Source: Thermodesulfovibrionales bacterium (GTDB lineage Bacteria > Nitrospirota > Thermodesulfovibrionia > Thermodesulfovibrionales > Dissulfurispiraceae). Taken from it: 64,000 nucleotides of DNA. The stretch covers positions 16,658-80,657 of the forward strand of contig JAOAGP010000039.1 of assembly GCA_026415695.1 (NCBI GenBank), in the 5' to 3' direction. Positions 1 to 8,739 of this stretch are shown here, piece after piece (the first letter of the stretch is position 1; each line of letters opens with the position of its first letter). The notes under the pieces were generated by a model. The model saw only the letters and a program-made list of their open reading frames with translations, did not search any database and was not told where the DNA came from. The translations under genes were made by a program, and so were the position numbers.

Positions 1-2
1 AG

Positions 3-326
3 GATGTCTCGGAGTCTTATTTAGAGCAGATACTCAATAAACTCAGAAAGGCGGGTCTAATCACGAGCAAAAAGGGTCCTGGTGGTGGATACACCCTTAC
101 AATGCCACCAGATGAGATAAGCATTGCAGATATCTTGATACAATTAGAGGGTCCCCTTGCCATAACATCATGTCTTGACCCATCAGAGGGGTGTTTGAGG
201 GTAGATAAGTGTGTTAGCCATCTTTTATGGAAGGGATTAGGGCAACAGATTGAGAGATTTTTAAAGACGATTAAATTAAGCCATCTTATAAAGGGAGATA
301 TTGGGAAGGAAGATGAAATTTGTTGA
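3..326 (+). CDS. Rrf2-family transcriptional regulator, 5'-truncated
   Basis: The reading frame is open from the window edge, so the N-terminal helix-turn-helix is partly missing. The visible part starts in the recognition region (SESYLEQILNKLRKAGLI), followed by the Rrf2 wing signature KKGPGGGY. A three-cysteine cluster follows (C-x6-C-x5-C in SCLDPSEGCLRVDKC), in the place where IscR binds a [2Fe-2S] cluster. In the family such proteins repress Fe-S or cysteine genes. Its place at the head of a tusA-like/iscS/iscU group suggests it is the Fe-S-sensing repressor of that operon. The last 14 bases overlap the next gene. Family assignment is firm; the ligand is inferred. Confidence 0.9.
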   Translation, partial: DVSESYLEQILNKLRKAGLITSKKGPGGGYTLTMPPDEISIADILIQLEGPLAITSCLDPSEGCLRVDKCVSHLLWKGLGQQIERFLKTIKLSHLIKGDIGKEDEIC

Positions 327-561
327 CAATGTAAAGGCAGATGTGACTGCAGATATAGTCTATATGATGTGTCCGATGCACCTATTGAAACTGGATGAGA
401 TGATGAAAAAGATTGAAAAAGGTCAGATACTTGAGATAATGACTGATTATGATGGTGCACTTGAAGACATCCCTCAATGGTGTGAAAAGACAGGGAATGA
501 ATTTATTGGGATTCATGAGGATGAGGATTATTTTAAGTTTTATGTAAGAAAACTTGTTTAA
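313..561 (+). CDS. TusA/SirA-like sulfur-carrier protein
   Basis: About 82 residues with the TusA-like fold pattern. The putative persulfide cysteine is in a short MMCPMHLLKLDEMM motif, followed by the LEIMTDYDGALEDIPQWCEKTGNEFIG block typical in layout of the family. The classical CPxP is CPMH here, so the second proline is missing. I start it at the ATG at 313, which follows GGAAGG, rather than at the TTG at 301. It overlaps the end of the Rrf2 gene and lies 15 bases before the IscS-like gene, so the three are probably cotranscribed. A role in handing sulfur to or from the neighbouring Fe-S assembly proteins is inferred. Confidence 0.8.
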   Translation: MKFVDNVKADVTADIVYMMCPMHLLKLDEMMKKIEKGQILEIMTDYDGALEDIPQWCEKTGNEFIGIHEDEDYFKFYVRKLV

Positions 562-576
562 AGGAGATATTTTGAT

Positions 577-1746
577 ATGAGATGCTATCTTGACCATGTT
601 GCAACTAATCCATTAGACCCTCAGGTGTTTGATGCAATGTTACCCTATTTTAAGGAGGAGTTTGGTAACCCATTAAGCATATATGATTTAGGTATAAAGG
701 CGAGAACTGCTATTGAAAACGCAAGGGAGCAGGTGGGCAAACTCATAAACTCAAAACCATCAAACATCATATTTACATCAAGTGGTGCTGAGGCAAACAA
801 CCTTGCCTTAAGAGGACTTGCGATGGCAAAACAATCAACTGGTAAGCATGTATTGGTCTCAAAGGTGGAGCATCACTCCATACTTAATTCTGCAAGGGTT
901 TTAGAAAAGAGTGGTTTTGCAGTCACATATCTGCCAGTTGATAAATATGGGGTTGTTGACCCAGATGTTGTAAAATCATCTATTACTAAAGAGACCATCC
1001 TTGTATCAATCACACATGCAAGCAGTGAGATTGGAAGCATTGAACCAATCAAGGAGATATCAAAGATTACTAAGCAGAAAAAGATACTCCTACATACCGA
1101 TGCTGTGGCAACTTGTGGGAATATCCCAGTAGATGTAAATGATTTGGATGTGGATGCATTGAGTATTGCTGCACATCAGTTTTACGGTCCGAAGGGGGCA
1201 GGTGCCCTTTATGTAAGAGAAGGGGTAAGGATTGTCCCCCTCATTTATGGAGGCATACAAGAAGGTGGAAGAAGGGCGGGCACTGAAAATGTTCCTGCTA
1301 TTGTAGGCATGGGTAAGGCTGCAGAGATAGCAATGCAAAGGATGTCTGATAGAATAGCACACTGCCAAAGACTACGAGACAGGATAATAGAATCAATTCT
1401 TAAGATACCAAATGTATATCTCACGGGTCATCCTGAAAATAGGTTGCCTCATCATGCAAGTTTTGTAGTGGAGTTTATTGAGGGTGAAGCCATGTTGCTG
1501 ATGCTTGCAATGAAGGGTATCTATGCAGCCAGTGGTTCGGCTTGCTCATCAAGGGCACTTAAATCTTCACCAGTTTTGCTTTCGTTAGGTGTGCAAACTG
1601 CCCTTGCACAGGGCTCAATAGTATTTACACTTGGACAGGGAAACACCGATGCAGAGATTGATTATCTATTGGATGAGTTCCCAAAGGTTATTAGTCGCTT
1701 AAGAGAGATGTCACCTTTTGCAAAGGGGTGGCAACAAGGCTCTTAG
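577..1746 (+). CDS. IscS/NifS-like protein lacking the PLP lysine
   Basis: A 389-residue class-V aminotransferase-fold protein, full length for IscS. The family normally uses PLP to take sulfur from cysteine. The motif around the Schiff-base lysine reads IAAHQFYGPKGAGALYVR: Gln201 stands where E. coli IscS has the lysine in SGHKIYGPKG. Other cofactor contacts also differ: HTDAVA (Ala178) instead of DATQ, SSEIG instead of NNEIG, and TSSGAE instead of SGATE. The mobile-loop cysteine is kept (Cys323 in ASGSACSSR), as is the stacking His99 (EHHSIL). The gene has no frameshift and looks maintained. Archaeoglobus fulgidus IscS was reported to lack this lysine and desulfurase activity while offering a cysteine ligand for cluster assembly on IscU. 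I infer a similar role here. Confidence 0.88.
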   Translation: MRCYLDHVATNPLDPQVFDAMLPYFKEEFGNPLSIYDLGIKARTAIENAREQVGKLINSKPSNIIFTSSGAEANNLALRGLAMAKQSTGKHVLVSKVEHHSILNSARVLEKSGFAVTYLPVDKYGVVDPDVVKSSITKETILVSITHASSEIGSIEPIKEISKITKQKKILLHTDAVATCGNIPVDVNDLDVDALSIAAHQFYGPKGAGALYVREGVRIVPLIYGGIQEGGRRAGTENVPAIVGMGKAAEIAMQRMSDRIAHCQRLRDRIIESILKIPNVYLTGHPENRLPHHASFVVEFIEGEAMLLMLAMKGIYAASGSACSSRALKSSPVLLSLGVQTALAQGSIVFTLGQGNTDAEIDYLLDEFPKVISRLREMSPFAKGWQQGS

Positions 1747-1771: not shown

Positions 1772-2833
1772 GTGTATATCTTGGCACTCCAAAGCACAGA
1801 CTATAAAGAAAGAAACTATCTTTCAGCTATTGAGGCAGCCAAATATCTTAAAATATCAGTTTCGGCCCTTCATTCTCTTGTTGGTAATAAAATAATCAAG
1901 GTTAAACAGTCAGCAAGTGGACAAATGAGATTTAGTCTATCAGAATTAAAAAAGGTTACTCATGACATATCCCATCACATAGAAGAGAAAAAAGATTATA
2001 ATCATGTAAATGTTTTTGAGATTAATGGGACAAATCACTGCCTGTATGTCAAGAATTCAATGTGTATGAATGACCTCCCTGACAATAGCATCCATCTGAT
2101 GATAACCTCTCCTCCTTACTTCAATGCAAAGATGTACTGCAGTCAGCAAATAGATGGTGATCTTGGAAACATTCACGATATAGACGAATGGTTTGAAAAG
2201 ATTGGTTATGTATGGAGAGAGGTTTATAGGGTTTTGCAACCTGGCAGAAAGGCTTTTATAAACATAATGAATCTCCCAATAAGGCTTAATGGCGGATTTA
2301 GGACATTAAATCTAACAGGCAAAACAATTGATTTATGTGAAAAGATAGGCTTTATATTTAAGCGTGATATAGTATGGCACAAAACAAATGCTGTGAGGGC
2401 ACATTTTGGCACTTATCCTTATCCTGGTGGAATACTCATAAACAATATGCATGAGTTTATCTTAGAGTTTGATAAACCAGAACAAAAGGGATTTAAGAAA
2501 TACGGACATCTAACAAGGCAACAGAAGGAGCAATCTAAATTGGATAAAGAGTTTTGGTTGTCTATCAAAAAAAGCGATGTCTGGATTATGAAACCTCAAG
2601 GTAGTGGAGACAGACGAGACCATGTTGCACCTTTCCCTTATGAATTGCCGTATAGACTTATTAAGGCATTTAGTTATGTTGGTGAGAGAGTTTTAGACCC
2701 GTTTGTAGGGGCAGGGACTACCTTATTTGCAGCAATTGACCTCAAGCGAAACGGTGTTGGTTATGAGATAAATCCAGAGATTGCTTTAGAGACAGCTAAG
2801 AAGATTAAGTCATATCAATATAAGCTGTGGTAG
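1772..2833 (+). CDS. type II DNA methyltransferase with N-terminal HTH
   Basis: A 353-residue amino-methyltransferase of the beta circular order: the catalytic motif IV SPPY is at 113-116 and the AdoMet motif DPFVGAGTT at 309-317. It should methylate adenine N6 or cytosine N4; SPPY does not decide which. Residues about 14-65 (YLSAIEAAKYLKISVSALHSL and following) look like an excisionase/MerR-type helix-turn-helix, so it may also bind its own promoter as a control domain. The start is GTG 1772, 25 bases after the IscS-like stop. Its last 7 bases overlap the putative endonuclease gene. The pair sits between iscS and iscU, which points to insertion by horizontal transfer. Confidence 0.9.
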   Translation: MYILALQSTDYKERNYLSAIEAAKYLKISVSALHSLVGNKIIKVKQSASGQMRFSLSELKKVTHDISHHIEEKKDYNHVNVFEINGTNHCLYVKNSMCMNDLPDNSIHLMITSPPYFNAKMYCSQQIDGDLGNIHDIDEWFEKIGYVWREVYRVLQPGRKAFINIMNLPIRLNGGFRTLNLTGKTIDLCEKIGFIFKRDIVWHKTNAVRAHFGTYPYPGGILINNMHEFILEFDKPEQKGFKKYGHLTRQQKEQSKLDKEFWLSIKKSDVWIMKPQGSGDRRDHVAPFPYELPYRLIKAFSYVGERVLDPFVGAGTTLFAAIDLKRNGVGYEINPEIALETAKKIKSYQYKLW

Positions 2834-3993
2834 AAAATCTGATGAAACCAGATGGCAAAACGATATATGCACAATCAAGTGATATTAAATCAAGGACATA
2901 TCTTGAATACCGTAAAGATATGAAGAAAAAAGCTATTTCGGAACTGGAAGTCCTGCCATGGCTTAGAAATAAACTAAAATCTAAATATGCGAGTGTTGTA
3001 GTTGAGAAATCTGGGGGTGATAGTTTTTTATGGTTCTTAAGAAAAGGTGGAATCTCAAGGGATGCTGATTTTAGGGCACGGATTGATGATAAGGAAATGG
3101 AGATTGAGTTTCAATATGCAGATACTGATATTAAAGATAATTATGTATTTGACTTTAAAATCTCTAAGGTTGCAACAAAGATAAAAGGTAAGAATAGTCT
3201 TGAACCTAAAGATACAATTTTTCTATATCTATTTAAATCATCTCCCACAAAATACGCCTTTATTCCTGCAAAATGGATACTTGATAATGGCACAAAAGGA
3301 GTGGCTCCTGCTTGGGGTAATAGAGAGGTTTATAAAATCATATGGAGTCAGCTTTCAAAAGCATCCATGATAGAAGAAGACAAATCATTGTCAGCTGTTT
3401 GGGAATTAATTGATATGAAACTATTCATCTTAGATTTTCAACATGAGTTGATTGATATATTTAAAGAACAACTTTCTCATAAACTTCAAAAAGTTATAGA
3501 TAAAAAACAGATTATTGAGATTATTCCACAGGATTTAAACAGTTTTTTTGAGGTGTGTTTTGTATTAGACAGTATAAATAAAATCCCTCAAAATGCTAAT
3601 CGTTGGTTAATTTATCTTTTAAAGTATGTTAATGATGAAAACACCCTTGAGGATATTTCTAAAATCATATATTGTATTGATTTTATCTATGCGAAAATTC
3701 CTCAACTAAAGAATAATGAAATTGAACAACTTATAAAAAACTTAAAGCTTTTGCTCAACAAAATAAGTAAGTTTTATCAACCTGATGGTTCTTATGTGTC
3801 GTCATCAAAAAAAAGCCCTTTAGAAAACACGAGATTTGCTCTGTTTTCAATAAATCTTTTGGAGGATTTGACACAAGATGCTATATACTACTATCAGGTC
3901 TCAGATTTAAAAAGTATAACTAAAATTTATGAAAATATCCCTGATATAGGTAAAACCTATGATTTCATAAAAAGGGCAATAGAAAGTAAATAA
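2827..3993 (+). CDS. putative type II restriction endonuclease
   Basis: 388 residues with no close family I can name. Assigned from context (7-base overlap with the methyltransferase gene) and a candidate PD-(D/E)xK-type site: Asp81 in SRDADFRARIDD, then Glu94-x-Gln96 in EMEIEFQYA. This D...ExQ arrangement is like the one known in BglII. The C-terminal half is lysine- and isoleucine-rich, probably helical, and without recognised motifs. Base composition is visibly more AT-rich than the flanking isc genes, consistent with acquisition. The start is GTG 2827 or possibly ATG 2842. Recognition sequence is unknown. Confidence 0.68.
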   Translation: MVENLMKPDGKTIYAQSSDIKSRTYLEYRKDMKKKAISELEVLPWLRNKLKSKYASVVVEKSGGDSFLWFLRKGGISRDADFRARIDDKEMEIEFQYADTDIKDNYVFDFKISKVATKIKGKNSLEPKDTIFLYLFKSSPTKYAFIPAKWILDNGTKGVAPAWGNREVYKIIWSQLSKASMIEEDKSLSAVWELIDMKLFILDFQHELIDIFKEQLSHKLQKVIDKKQIIEIIPQDLNSFFEVCFVLDSINKIPQNANRWLIYLLKYVNDENTLEDISKIIYCIDFIYAKIPQLKNNEIEQLIKNLKLLLNKISKFYQPDGSYVSSSKKSPLENTRFALFSINLLEDLTQDAIYYYQVSDLKSITKIYENIPDIGKTYDFIKRAIESK

Positions 3994-4010
3994 TTTCAAT
4001 GGAGGAAGTC

Positions 4011-4388
4011 ATGTATTCAGCCAAAGTAATGGATCATTTCTCAAACCCAAGAAATGTTGGAGAGATACCTGATGCAGATGGTGTAGGGATGGAAGGCAAT
4101 CCCACTTGTGGGGATGCAATGCAGATATTTATAAAAGTCAAAGACGACATCATTACTGACATCAAGTTTAAGACATTTGGCTGTGGCGCTGCTATAGCTG
4201 TAAGCAGTATGGTCACAGAAATGGCAAAAGGCAAACACATTGACGAGGCTTTAAAGATTACTAAAGAGGCAGTGGCAGCTGAGCTTGATGGGCTACCACC
4301 ACAAAAGATGCATTGTTCAAATTTAGGTGCTGATGCACTAAGAAAGGCTATTGAGGATTATAGGAGTAAAAAGGCGGCAGGTGGTTAA
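4011..4388 (+). CDS. iscU: Fe-S cluster assembly scaffold IscU
   Basis: 125 residues, an IscU-type scaffold that assembles [2Fe-2S] clusters. The three ligand cysteines are present: Cys33 in NPTCGDAM, the one in FGCGAAIAVSSM, and the one in MHCSNLGADAL with its preceding His. The Asp after the first cysteine (CGD) is also kept. The start is the ATG at 4011, because GGAGGA at 4001-4006 is a ribosome site ahead of it; the ATG at 3999 lies before that site. It should partner with the IscS-like protein, but 2.2 kb of restriction-modification genes now separate them. Confidence 0.95.
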   Translation: MYSAKVMDHFSNPRNVGEIPDADGVGMEGNPTCGDAMQIFIKVKDDIITDIKFKTFGCGAAIAVSSMVTEMAKGKHIDEALKITKEAVAAELDGLPPQKMHCSNLGADALRKAIEDYRSKKAAGG

Positions 4389-8256: not shown

Positions 8257-8739
8257 ATGGAAAAGGATGTCAAAAACATTGAAGGTAAACACCTAAACAT
8301 CATAGAGGCTGAGTTTATGAATGTTAGTCAAAGCACTATTCGGTCTGTTGAGGGAGGTAATATTGATTTACAACAGGTTGCCGCAGTCAGTATTGATGGT
8401 GAAAAGATTGATGTTACTCAAGGTGCGTCAATAATCTTAAAAGGTGAGACGGTCAATATGAATCAGAGTATGGCAGTGATGGCTGCTGGCAATACAAACA
8501 ACCACAACTTCTCTTTTACGCCACTTACTATCTCTGAAGAGACGACAATCAATAAAAGTGCTGCTGGTGTGGTTGTGTCTAATAATCTAAATGCAAGCAA
8601 TACGACCTCAATCCTTACTATCGCAAAAAATATAAATGGTGACATCACTACCCTGATTGATTGGCGTTCTGCATTGGCTTTAAGTGCAATTATGGGTGGA
8701 GTTTTGGCTTTTATTAAGATATTTCAGAAAGGCAAGTAG
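8257..8739 (+). CDS. 15-residue-repeat protein with C-terminal membrane anchor
   Basis: 160 residues; I do not recognise a family. Residues 16-75 are four exact 15-residue repeats beginning IEAEF, VEGGN, IDGEK and LKGET, with the pattern [IVL]-x-G-x-x-[IV]-[DN]-[VLM]-x-Q and a glutamine at residues 25, 40, 55 and 70. This regularity suggests a small beta-solenoid. A Ser/Thr/Asn-rich stretch follows, then one hydrophobic segment (about 138-155, ALALSAIMGGVLAFIKIF) and a basic end. AAAAGGAGG precedes the ATG. It lies 12 bases after valS and before nadC. A membrane-tethered, possibly self-assembling protein is inferred. Confidence 0.7.
   Translation: MEKDVKNIEGKHLNIIEAEFMNVSQSTIRSVEGGNIDLQQVAAVSIDGEKIDVTQGASIILKGETVNMNQSMAVMAAGNTNNHNFSFTPLTISEETTINKSAAGVVVSNNLNASNTTSILTIAKNINGDITTLIDWRSALALSAIMGGVLAFIKIFQKGK

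What the first reader, a model, noticed from the sequence alone, without database searches (positions are those of the whole stretch)
577..1746. IscS-like protein without the PLP lysine in an isc operon
Seen: Gln201 replaces the Schiff-base lysine, and Ala178, Ser149-Ser150 and Ala71 replace the usual Gln, Asn-Asn and Thr of the PLP site, while Cys323 and His99 are kept. The gene is full length next to an Rrf2 regulator, a TusA-like carrier and IscU. Known: Archaeoglobus fulgidus IscS was reported to lack this lysine and desulfurase activity and to offer a cysteine ligand to the cluster on IscU. Inference: this bacterium may build clusters from free sulfide, or take sulfur from the TusA-like carrier, with IscS as a partner rather than an enzyme.
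Basis: partly seen in the sequence, partly recalled or inferred. Interest (0 to 1): 0.82.

Follow-up and report, generated by a model that had tools for sequence, protein, structure and literature searches.

The report
Desulfurase-dead IscS fed by TusA
In this bacterium and in relatives from several phyla, the IscS protein of the iron-sulfur cluster operon has lost the lysine and the arginine that known cysteine desulfurases use to take sulfur from cysteine but keeps its sulfur-carrying cysteine, and it likely passes sulfur from TusA, a carrier encoded beside it, to the cluster scaffold IscU, which would be a way to feed cluster assembly without acting on cysteine itself.

Summary
It is neither an error nor a decaying gene: 26 of 31 genomes of the family carry a full-length copy, all with Gln201 and Cys323; the 120 best database proteins agree; median dN/dS is 0.056. 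In 80 related loci, Arg349 is present in 25 of 25 Lys-bearing and 0 of 55 Lys-less copies, while Cys323 is kept in all. The Lys-less copies group together across seven labelled phyla, four of them with one locus each. A TusA gene lies within 2 kb in 50 of 55 Lys-less and 0 of 25 Lys-bearing loci. The genome's only detected IscU lies in this operon and no SufB/D was found, but a Lys-bearing desulfurase exists elsewhere. I infer a PLP-independent persulfide relay, TusA to Cys323 to IscU. The main rival is the Archaeoglobus model (cysteine ligand donor, sulfide-fed). Lys-less IscS is known from two archaea and one PDB series; the breadth, the Arg loss and the TusA link are what I add. No activity was tested.

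The parts
1..326 (+). Rrf2/IscR-like regulator, 3' part; the whole gene (143 aa) begins 106 bases before the window
   Evidence: PF02082; whole ORF read at L240:7553-7984; the cut piece scores below the IscR cut-off TIGR02010
313..561 (+). TusA-like sulfur carrier, 82 aa, Cys-Pro motif kept (CPMH)
   Evidence: PF01206 71.3 bits, cut-off 28.6; linkage to Lys-less IscS
577..1746 (+). Lys-less IscS homologue, 389 aa; Gln201, Val349, Ala71, Ser149-Ser150, Ala178, Ala198; Cys323, His99, Asp175, Thr236 kept
   Evidence: PF00266 259.1 bits
1177..1179 (+). codon 201 CAG (Gln) at the PLP-lysine position
1543..1545 (+). codon 323 TGC (Cys), persulfide cysteine position
1621..1623 (+). codon 349 GTA (Val) at the substrate-arginine position (E. 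coli IscS Arg354)
   Evidence: E. coli residue named in PMC9978102 (passages); the match of the two numberings (offset 5) and the residue's role in substrate binding are recalled
1772..2833 (+). N4/N6 DNA methyltransferase between iscS and iscU; probably not part of the Fe-S system
   Evidence: PF01555, PADLOC type II MTase
2827..3993 (+). 388-aa ORF without family match, overlapping the methyltransferase gene; possible restriction partner (inferred)
   Evidence: no Pfam, NCBIfam or PADLOC match
3999..4388 (+). IscU scaffold, 129 aa; Cys37/Asp39/Cys63/Lys103/His105/Cys106 equivalents kept; the only PF01592 match in the genome
   Evidence: TIGR03419 208.8 bits, cut-off 187.9; ligand count

Best explanation
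This IscS homologue has lost the PLP lysine and the substrate arginine but keeps the persulfide cysteine, so it is predicted to be no cysteine desulfurase but a persulfide relay that likely takes sulfur from the TusA protein encoded beside it on Cys323 and passes it to IscU. Shown: the substitutions, their fixation under purifying selection, the invariance of Cys323 and of the IscU ligands in the rows examined, the linkage with TusA, and that this operon holds the genome's only detected IscU with no detected SufB/D. Inferred: loss of desulfurase activity (E. coli IscS K206A is inactive, PMC9978102), loss or weakening of PLP binding, direct TusA-to-IscS transfer (the reverse of the known E. coli direction, whose crystal structure puts TusA Cys19 about 4 A from IscS Cys328, PMC2854127), and the final step to IscU. 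Where TusA gets its sulfur is open: candidates in this genome are the Lys-bearing desulfurase on contig C6 and a DsrH-DsrE-DsrE-TusA cluster on contig C9.
For: Lys and Arg go together: of 80 loci, 25 Lys-bearing all have Arg349, 55 Lys-less have Val, Leu or Ile. Cys323 and His99 are kept in 55 of 55 Lys-less loci. TusA profile hit within 2 kb on the same strand: 50 of 55 Lys-less against 0 of 25 Lys-bearing loci; in the family loci 25 of 26 against 0 of 4. Five loci are in both sets; of 76 distinct Lys-less loci 70 have TusA. Within Chloroflexota alone it is 8 of 12 against 0 of 4. In the 14 genomes (13 with a Lys-less gene, one methanogen), 11 separate Lys-bearing IscS-type genes with up to 1.5 kb flanks have no TusA. 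The same profile finds all four TusA of this genome, so it is not blind to other TusA. TusA lies upstream in 53 and downstream in 18 of the distinct hits and on different sides in the sister loci L092 and L106, so the link has survived rearrangement. In the class of L082's genome (titled 'archaeon'), 20 of 21 Lys-less genes (one is L082 again; an odd second copy in L210 set aside) have TusA in the locus, against 0 of 9 Lys-bearing genes standing alone, some with short flanks. DsrE2 genes, known TusA partners (recalled), are in 10 of 55 Lys-less and 0 of 25 Lys-bearing loci. TusA Cys-Pro is kept in 79 of 80 stretches; the other is cut by a contig end.
Against: No protein was tested. The linkage counts are not independent trials: the Lys-less rows are mostly one clade, 30 of the 55 are Nitrospirota, and 14 of the 25 Lys-bearing loci are Bacillota, so descent and taxon explain part of the contrast. 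TusA is missing from 6 of 76 distinct Lys-less loci; L068 holds only about 0.1 kb and L066 about 1.1 kb downstream, L034 about 1.5 kb each side, but L074, L081 and L089 have nearly 6 kb on both sides. Eight of 55 Lys-less loci show no IscU in the locus (L054, L071, L093, L094, L102, L105, L112, L115), so IscU is not always the neighbour. In E. coli the flow runs IscS to TusA, and TusA and IscU bind competing sites (title of PMC11302665, search listing). E. coli IscS R354K is as active as wild type (PMC9978102 passages), though Val is a larger change than Lys. An A. fulgidus structure shows PLP and a cluster ligated by the IscS cysteine (PMC9769115 passages), which fits ligand donation as well as relay.
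Confidence: 0.5

Rival explanations
1. Archaeoglobus-type ligand donor: the protein holds IscU and lends Cys323 as a temporary cluster ligand, while sulfur comes as free sulfide from dissimilatory sulfite reduction.
For: A. fulgidus IscS shows the same losses (Lys to Asp, Gln to Ala, Arg to Leu) and gives Cys321 to the cluster in a complex with IscU D35A (PMC9769115 passages; PMC7585200 passages). The genome has DsrA (559.6 bits) and a second DsrA-like hit beside it. H2S can feed IscU in E. coli lacking IscS (PMC13015791 passages).
Against: It does not explain the TusA linkage. Lys-less copies also occur in Brocadia, Dehalococcoidia and Clostridia loci, where sulfide production was not examined.
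Confidence: 0.3
2. Inactive subunit: it pairs with a Lys-bearing desulfurase as regulator or adaptor, the active protein supplying the sulfur.
For: 24 of 31 family genomes hold both a Lys-less and a Lys-bearing homologue. In the class of L082's genome nine loci hold Lys-bearing and Lys-less genes side by side.
Against: Here the Lys-bearing gene is on another contig, next to RapZ- and HPF-like ORFs (named by eye), and only 39% identical. One genome rated 98% complete, G007, shows no Lys-bearing IscS-type homologue, though a gap in its 160 contigs is possible.
Confidence: 0.1
3. PLP is still bound non-covalently and the protein does another reaction.
For: A. fulgidus IscS structure 4EB5 is drawn with PLP (PMC9769115 figure legend); E. 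coli K206A keeps some PLP (PMC9978102 passages). His99, Asp175 and Thr236 are kept.
Against: Thr/Ser71, Asn149-150, Gln178, Ser198, Lys201 and Arg349 are replaced in this protein, and the letter at 201 varies in the clade (Q, S, R, P, E, M, G, T, Y), unlike a new catalytic residue.
Confidence: 0.08
4. Sequencing error or pseudogene.
Against: 26 of 26 family copies and 120 of 120 database proteins (own included in both) have Gln201; median dN/dS 0.056.
Confidence: 0.01

Closest known systems
Archaeoglobus fulgidus IscS (PDB 4eb5, 4eb7, 4hvk; D199K mutant 4r5f)
   Same: No PLP lysine, Gln to Ala, Arg to Leu, cysteine kept, IscU partner (PMC7585200 and PMC9769115 passages)
   Different: Asp rather than Gln at the lysine; archaeal; 46-49% identical over the fold. 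Whether it is in the same clade is unresolved. TusA linkage of the A. fulgidus gene was not tested; two Asp-bearing relatives, L228 and L229, have TusA in the locus
Methanosarcina acetivorans IscS1
   Same: Reported to lack the lysine (PMC7585200, passages and section 5)
   Different: Its sequence was not examined here; its iscSU cluster holds four further genes of unknown function
PDB series 9wep, 9wer, 9wew, 9wf8, 9wfb, 9wfe, 9wfy ('cysteine desulfurase')
   Same: 9wfy has Leu at the lysine and Val at the arginine; it is the first hit of the Hydrogenothermaceae protein L085, and the same backbone (9wep) is sister to L085 in the tree
   Different: The other six carry Lys and differ at active-site positions; I read them as engineered back-changes of 9wfy (inference). 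No paper was found
E. coli IscS with TusA and IscU (3lvj, 3lvl)
   Different: Active desulfurase; sulfur flows from IscS to TusA (PMC2854127 passages)

Membership tests
Group I cysteine desulfurase (IscS/NifS enzyme) | Class V aminotransferase fold | tested here: met
Group I cysteine desulfurase (IscS/NifS enzyme) | Lysine that binds PLP | tested here: not met
   Gln201
Group I cysteine desulfurase (IscS/NifS enzyme) | Substrate arginine (E. coli Arg354) | tested here: not met
   Val349; 0 of 55 Lys-less against 25 of 25 Lys-bearing loci have Arg
Group I cysteine desulfurase (IscS/NifS enzyme) | Persulfide cysteine in the SGSAC loop | tested here: met
   Cys323; 55 of 55 Lys-less loci
Group I cysteine desulfurase (IscS/NifS enzyme) | NCBIfam equivalog cut-off for NifS or IscS | tested here: not met
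   TIGR03402 486.7 of 530.75; TIGR02006 398 of 643.2 bits. The broader subfamily model NF002806 is passed (307.8 of 304)
Group I cysteine desulfurase (IscS/NifS enzyme) | Desulfurase activity | not testable with these tools
   needs purified protein
Lys-less IscS partner (A. fulgidus type) | Lys lost, cysteine kept, IscU gene in the operon | tested here: met
Lys-less IscS partner (A. fulgidus type) | One clade with A. fulgidus IscS | tested here: inconclusive
   Free tree separates them, but the tree holding all Lys-less rows together is not rejected (p-AU 0.798) and scored higher
Lys-less IscS partner (A. fulgidus type) | Cysteine ligand to the cluster on IscU | not testable with these tools
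   needs a structure of the complex
TusA sulfur carrier (window 313-561) | PF01206 with Cys-Pro motif | tested here: met
   71.3 bits, cut-off 28.6; CPMH
IscU scaffold (window 3999-4388) | Cys, Asp, Cys, His, Cys cluster ligands | tested here: met
   TIGR03419 above cut-off

The most novel reading that the evidence does not exclude
A PLP-independent branch of the ISC machinery exists across at least seven bacterial phyla and archaea: IscS gave up cysteine as substrate, losing the lysine and the arginine together, and became a dedicated persulfide relay that loads IscU from TusA, itself fed by Dsr/DsrE-type sulfur traffic rather than by IscS.
Probability: 0.4. Interest if true: 0.85.

Novelty: new variant of a known kind. 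Interest (0 to 1): 0.68.

Why it matters
Cysteine desulfurase is the textbook entry point of sulfur into Fe-S clusters. In this genome the only detected scaffold is the IscU beside a Lys-less IscS, and 16 of 20 family genomes checked, this one included, show no SufB/D core. If the relay is right, many anaerobic bacteria would feed cluster assembly through a sulfur carrier, and annotation pipelines that call these genes 'cysteine desulfurase' misname the step. The arginine loss in A. fulgidus IscS would also mean that putting the lysine back (entry 4r5f) need not restore activity. The question can be tested directly with three small proteins from this operon.

Tried and rejected
Sequencing error or pseudogene: rejected. 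His36 to Tyr as part of the loss: rejected, Tyr is common in Lys-bearing loci too (19 of 25). 'Only desulfurase in the genome': rejected, L002 has the canonical residues. The other aminotransferase-V hits of this genome (L003 and weaker) were not classified further. Strictly one or strictly two origins of the loss: left open. The 88-row tree puts all 58 Lys-less rows on one side of a branch (SH-aLRT 99). The 122-row tree needs three changes: the A. fulgidus type and a Leu201/Arg349 copy beside L082 fall in a group with archaeal Lys-bearing rows, and the PDB row 9wep (Lys) falls inside the Lys-less clade. The 84-row tree with 9wfy instead gives 39 main rows at SH-aLRT 100 and three A. fulgidus-type rows apart, but the AU test does not reject one group. 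For one search I left out 23 of 111 rows as near-duplicates; for near-duplicates, fragments and part of the paralogues; for a further 38 of 122 rows (long branches and near-duplicates), among them the Leu201/Arg349 copy, which is the one Lys-less gene seen that keeps Arg and which also lacks His99. The predicted structure has mean pLDDT 70.5 and under 50 for residues 283-348, so nothing was read from the pocket or the Cys loop. DsrE2 (PF13686) was sought in this genome and not found. Paper searches for Lys-less desulfurases, for TusA with IscS in these phyla and for the 9W series listed no paper whose title or abstract start describes the bacterial clade or its TusA link; the library lacks most subscription papers.

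Full report
What is there. The window's IscS homologue (577-1746, 389 aa) is full length and in frame. I add Val349 in place of the arginine that matches E. coli IscS Arg354, and Ala198 in place of a serine kept in all 25 Lys-bearing loci. It fails the NCBIfam equivalog cut-offs for NifS and IscS while scoring high on both.

It is fixed and selected. Of 31 genomes of the family (own included), 26 have a full-length copy, the other 25 at 68-81% identity to the window's; all 26 have Gln201, Cys323, His99 and Val349. G015 has only a C-terminal piece at a contig end, with Val349. The 120 best proteins of a 5.8-billion-protein search (own included; 8000 candidates scored) all have Gln201, Val349, Cys323 and His99. 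Pairwise dN/dS is low (median 0.056 over the 15 of 300 pairs with dS < 1.5).

How far it reaches. An alignment of 22 of the copies was used to scan one genome per species; the tool kept the best 80 of at least 592 matches, so the sample leans to close relatives. Of these 80, 55 lack the lysine and 25 have it. The 55 are labelled Nitrospirota (30), Chloroflexota (12), Thermodesulfobacteriota (3), Planctomycetota, Myxococcota, Bacillota and Aquificota (1 each), an Aminicenantes MAG, an archaeal MAG and four without a phylum; nearly all are MAG contigs, so single-locus labels could be binning errors. The letter at 201 is Gln in 41 of 55, otherwise Ser, Arg, Pro, Glu, Met, Gly, Thr or Tyr, while the arginine is always replaced by Val, Leu or Ile. 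With the trait columns left out, the 58 Lys-less rows of an 88-row tree fall on one side of a branch (SH-aLRT 99). With further archaeal rows and the A. fulgidus chain added, the main group stays together (39 of 84 rows, SH-aLRT 100) and the A. fulgidus type stands apart, but a common group is not rejected (p-AU 0.798), so one or two origins remain possible. One Lys-less gene, the second copy beside L082, keeps the arginine.

Archaeoglobus. The A. fulgidus chain 4eb5 aligns with Asp at the lysine, Ala at the Gln, Leu at the Arg and the cysteine kept, so the known Lys-less IscS shows the same double loss. Entry 4r5f is the D199K mutant and still has Leu at the arginine. PMC7585200 (passages and section 5) says that A. 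fulgidus IscS lacks activity because of Lys to Asp and that M. acetivorans IscS1 also lacks the lysine. The original A. fulgidus papers were seen only as references.

Gene company. In this genome the order is rrf2 - tusA - iscS - methyltransferase - unassigned ORF - iscU. The genome's single PF01592 match is this IscU; no SUFBD_core match was found, nor in 16 of 20 family genomes, this one included. IscU from Lys-less loci keeps the cluster ligands wherever letters are present (73 rows, duplicate loci not removed, 1-3 gaps per site; 22 of 22 rows for Lys-bearing loci). A TusA profile finds a hit within 2 kb on the same strand in 50 of 55 Lys-less and 0 of 25 Lys-bearing loci of the scan, and in 25 of 26 against 0 of 4 family loci. 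Five loci are in both sets; of the 76 distinct Lys-less loci 70 have TusA. Because 14 of the 25 Lys-bearing loci are Bacillota and 30 of the 55 Lys-less are Nitrospirota, I looked inside groups: Chloroflexota 8 of 12 against 0 of 4; in the 14 genomes, 0 of 11 separate Lys-bearing IscS-type genes (L154 is L118 again). The class of L082's genome gives 20 of 21 Lys-less genes against 0 of 9 Lys-bearing genes standing alone; nine more Lys-bearing genes lie in tandem with a Lys-less one and eight of those clusters hold TusA. Position varies: 53 upstream, 18 downstream among distinct hits, and the sister loci L092 and L106 differ. DsrE2 genes are in ten of the 55 Lys-less loci and in none of the 25 others, for example IscS-IscU-DsrE2-TusA in L069. 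The relatedness of the rows means that these counts are not independent trials.

Sulfur supply. This genome has a canonical Lys-bearing homologue on contig C6 (L002: Lys, Arg, Asn-Asn, Gln), DsrA plus a second DsrA-like hit beside it, and four TusA, one of which follows DsrH-, DsrE- and DsrE-like genes on contig C9. In the family, 24 of 31 genomes hold both kinds, 2 only the Lys-less kind (G001, which also has a fragment that does not reach residue 201, and G007) and 5 only Lys-bearing full-length kinds (G015 among them). G007, rated 98% complete, shows no Lys-bearing IscS-type copy, but its sister G008, a single contig, does, so a gap is likely.

Reading. What acts on free cysteine is lost (PLP lysine, substrate arginine, parts of the PLP cup), and what carries a persulfide and meets partners is kept (Cys loop, fold, IscU, TusA). 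E. coli IscS K206A has no desulfurase activity; R354K in contrast is as active as wild type (PMC9978102 passages), so the arginine argument rests on its loss to a hydrophobic residue. In the E. coli IscS-TusA crystal the two cysteines are about 4 A apart (PMC2854127 passages). A thiol-persulfide exchange can run either way (general chemistry, not tested), so a relay from TusA through Cys323 to IscU is the simplest use of these parts. The Archaeoglobus model, in which the IscS cysteine is a temporary ligand and sulfur comes as sulfide, remains a live rival and could act together with the relay.

Novelty. Lys-less IscS is known in archaea, and the PDB holds a series whose member 9wfy is a Lys-less protein close to an Aquificota one, apparently with stepwise back-changes in the other six (reading inferred; no paper found). 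I found no paper on a multi-phylum Lys-less clade, the paired arginine loss or the TusA linkage in the searches listed under Tried and rejected. I therefore rate it a new variant of a known kind.

Noticed in passing
window 1772-3993: A DNA methyltransferase gene with a HTH domain and an overlapping 388-aa ORF without any family match sit between iscS and iscU; neither protein has a hit in the other fetched iscS loci searched. Possibly a restriction-modification pair inserted into the operon.
   Followed up: partly
L222, L224, L226, L233-L236, L238, L239 (class of L082's genome): Tandem IscS genes, one with Lys, the next Lys-less with Leu at the arginine, next to IscU and mostly TusA: a possible active/inactive pair.
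   Followed up: partly
PDB 9wep, 9wer, 9wew, 9wf8, 9wfb, 9wfe, 9wfy: Seven chains of one backbone that differ at active-site positions; 9wfy lacks the lysine and arginine, the others regain them in part or whole.
   Followed up: partly
L054, L071, L093, L094, L102, L105, L112, L115: Lys-less IscS with TusA but without IscU in the locus; in the genomes of L071 and L102 a Lys-bearing IscS-IscU pair is elsewhere (L129, L133). The module may have a second use.
   Followed up: partly
L071:7186-7815: TusA domain at the C-terminal end of a 209-aa protein whose N-terminal 130 residues match no Pfam family, beside a Lys-less IscS.
   Followed up: no
L242:2685-4055 (contig C9 of the same genome): DsrH-, DsrE-, DsrE- and TusA-like genes in a row, a sulfur-relay cluster separate from the isc operon.
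   Followed up: partly
L210:346-1494 (-), second IscS copy beside L082's: An IscS homologue with Leu at the lysine, Gln at His99, but Arg349 kept: the one exception seen to the paired loss.
   Followed up: no
window 8257-8739: 160-aa ORF of repeat-like composition without Pfam or NCBIfam match, between valS and a pyrophosphorylase-like gene (both named by eye).
   Followed up: no
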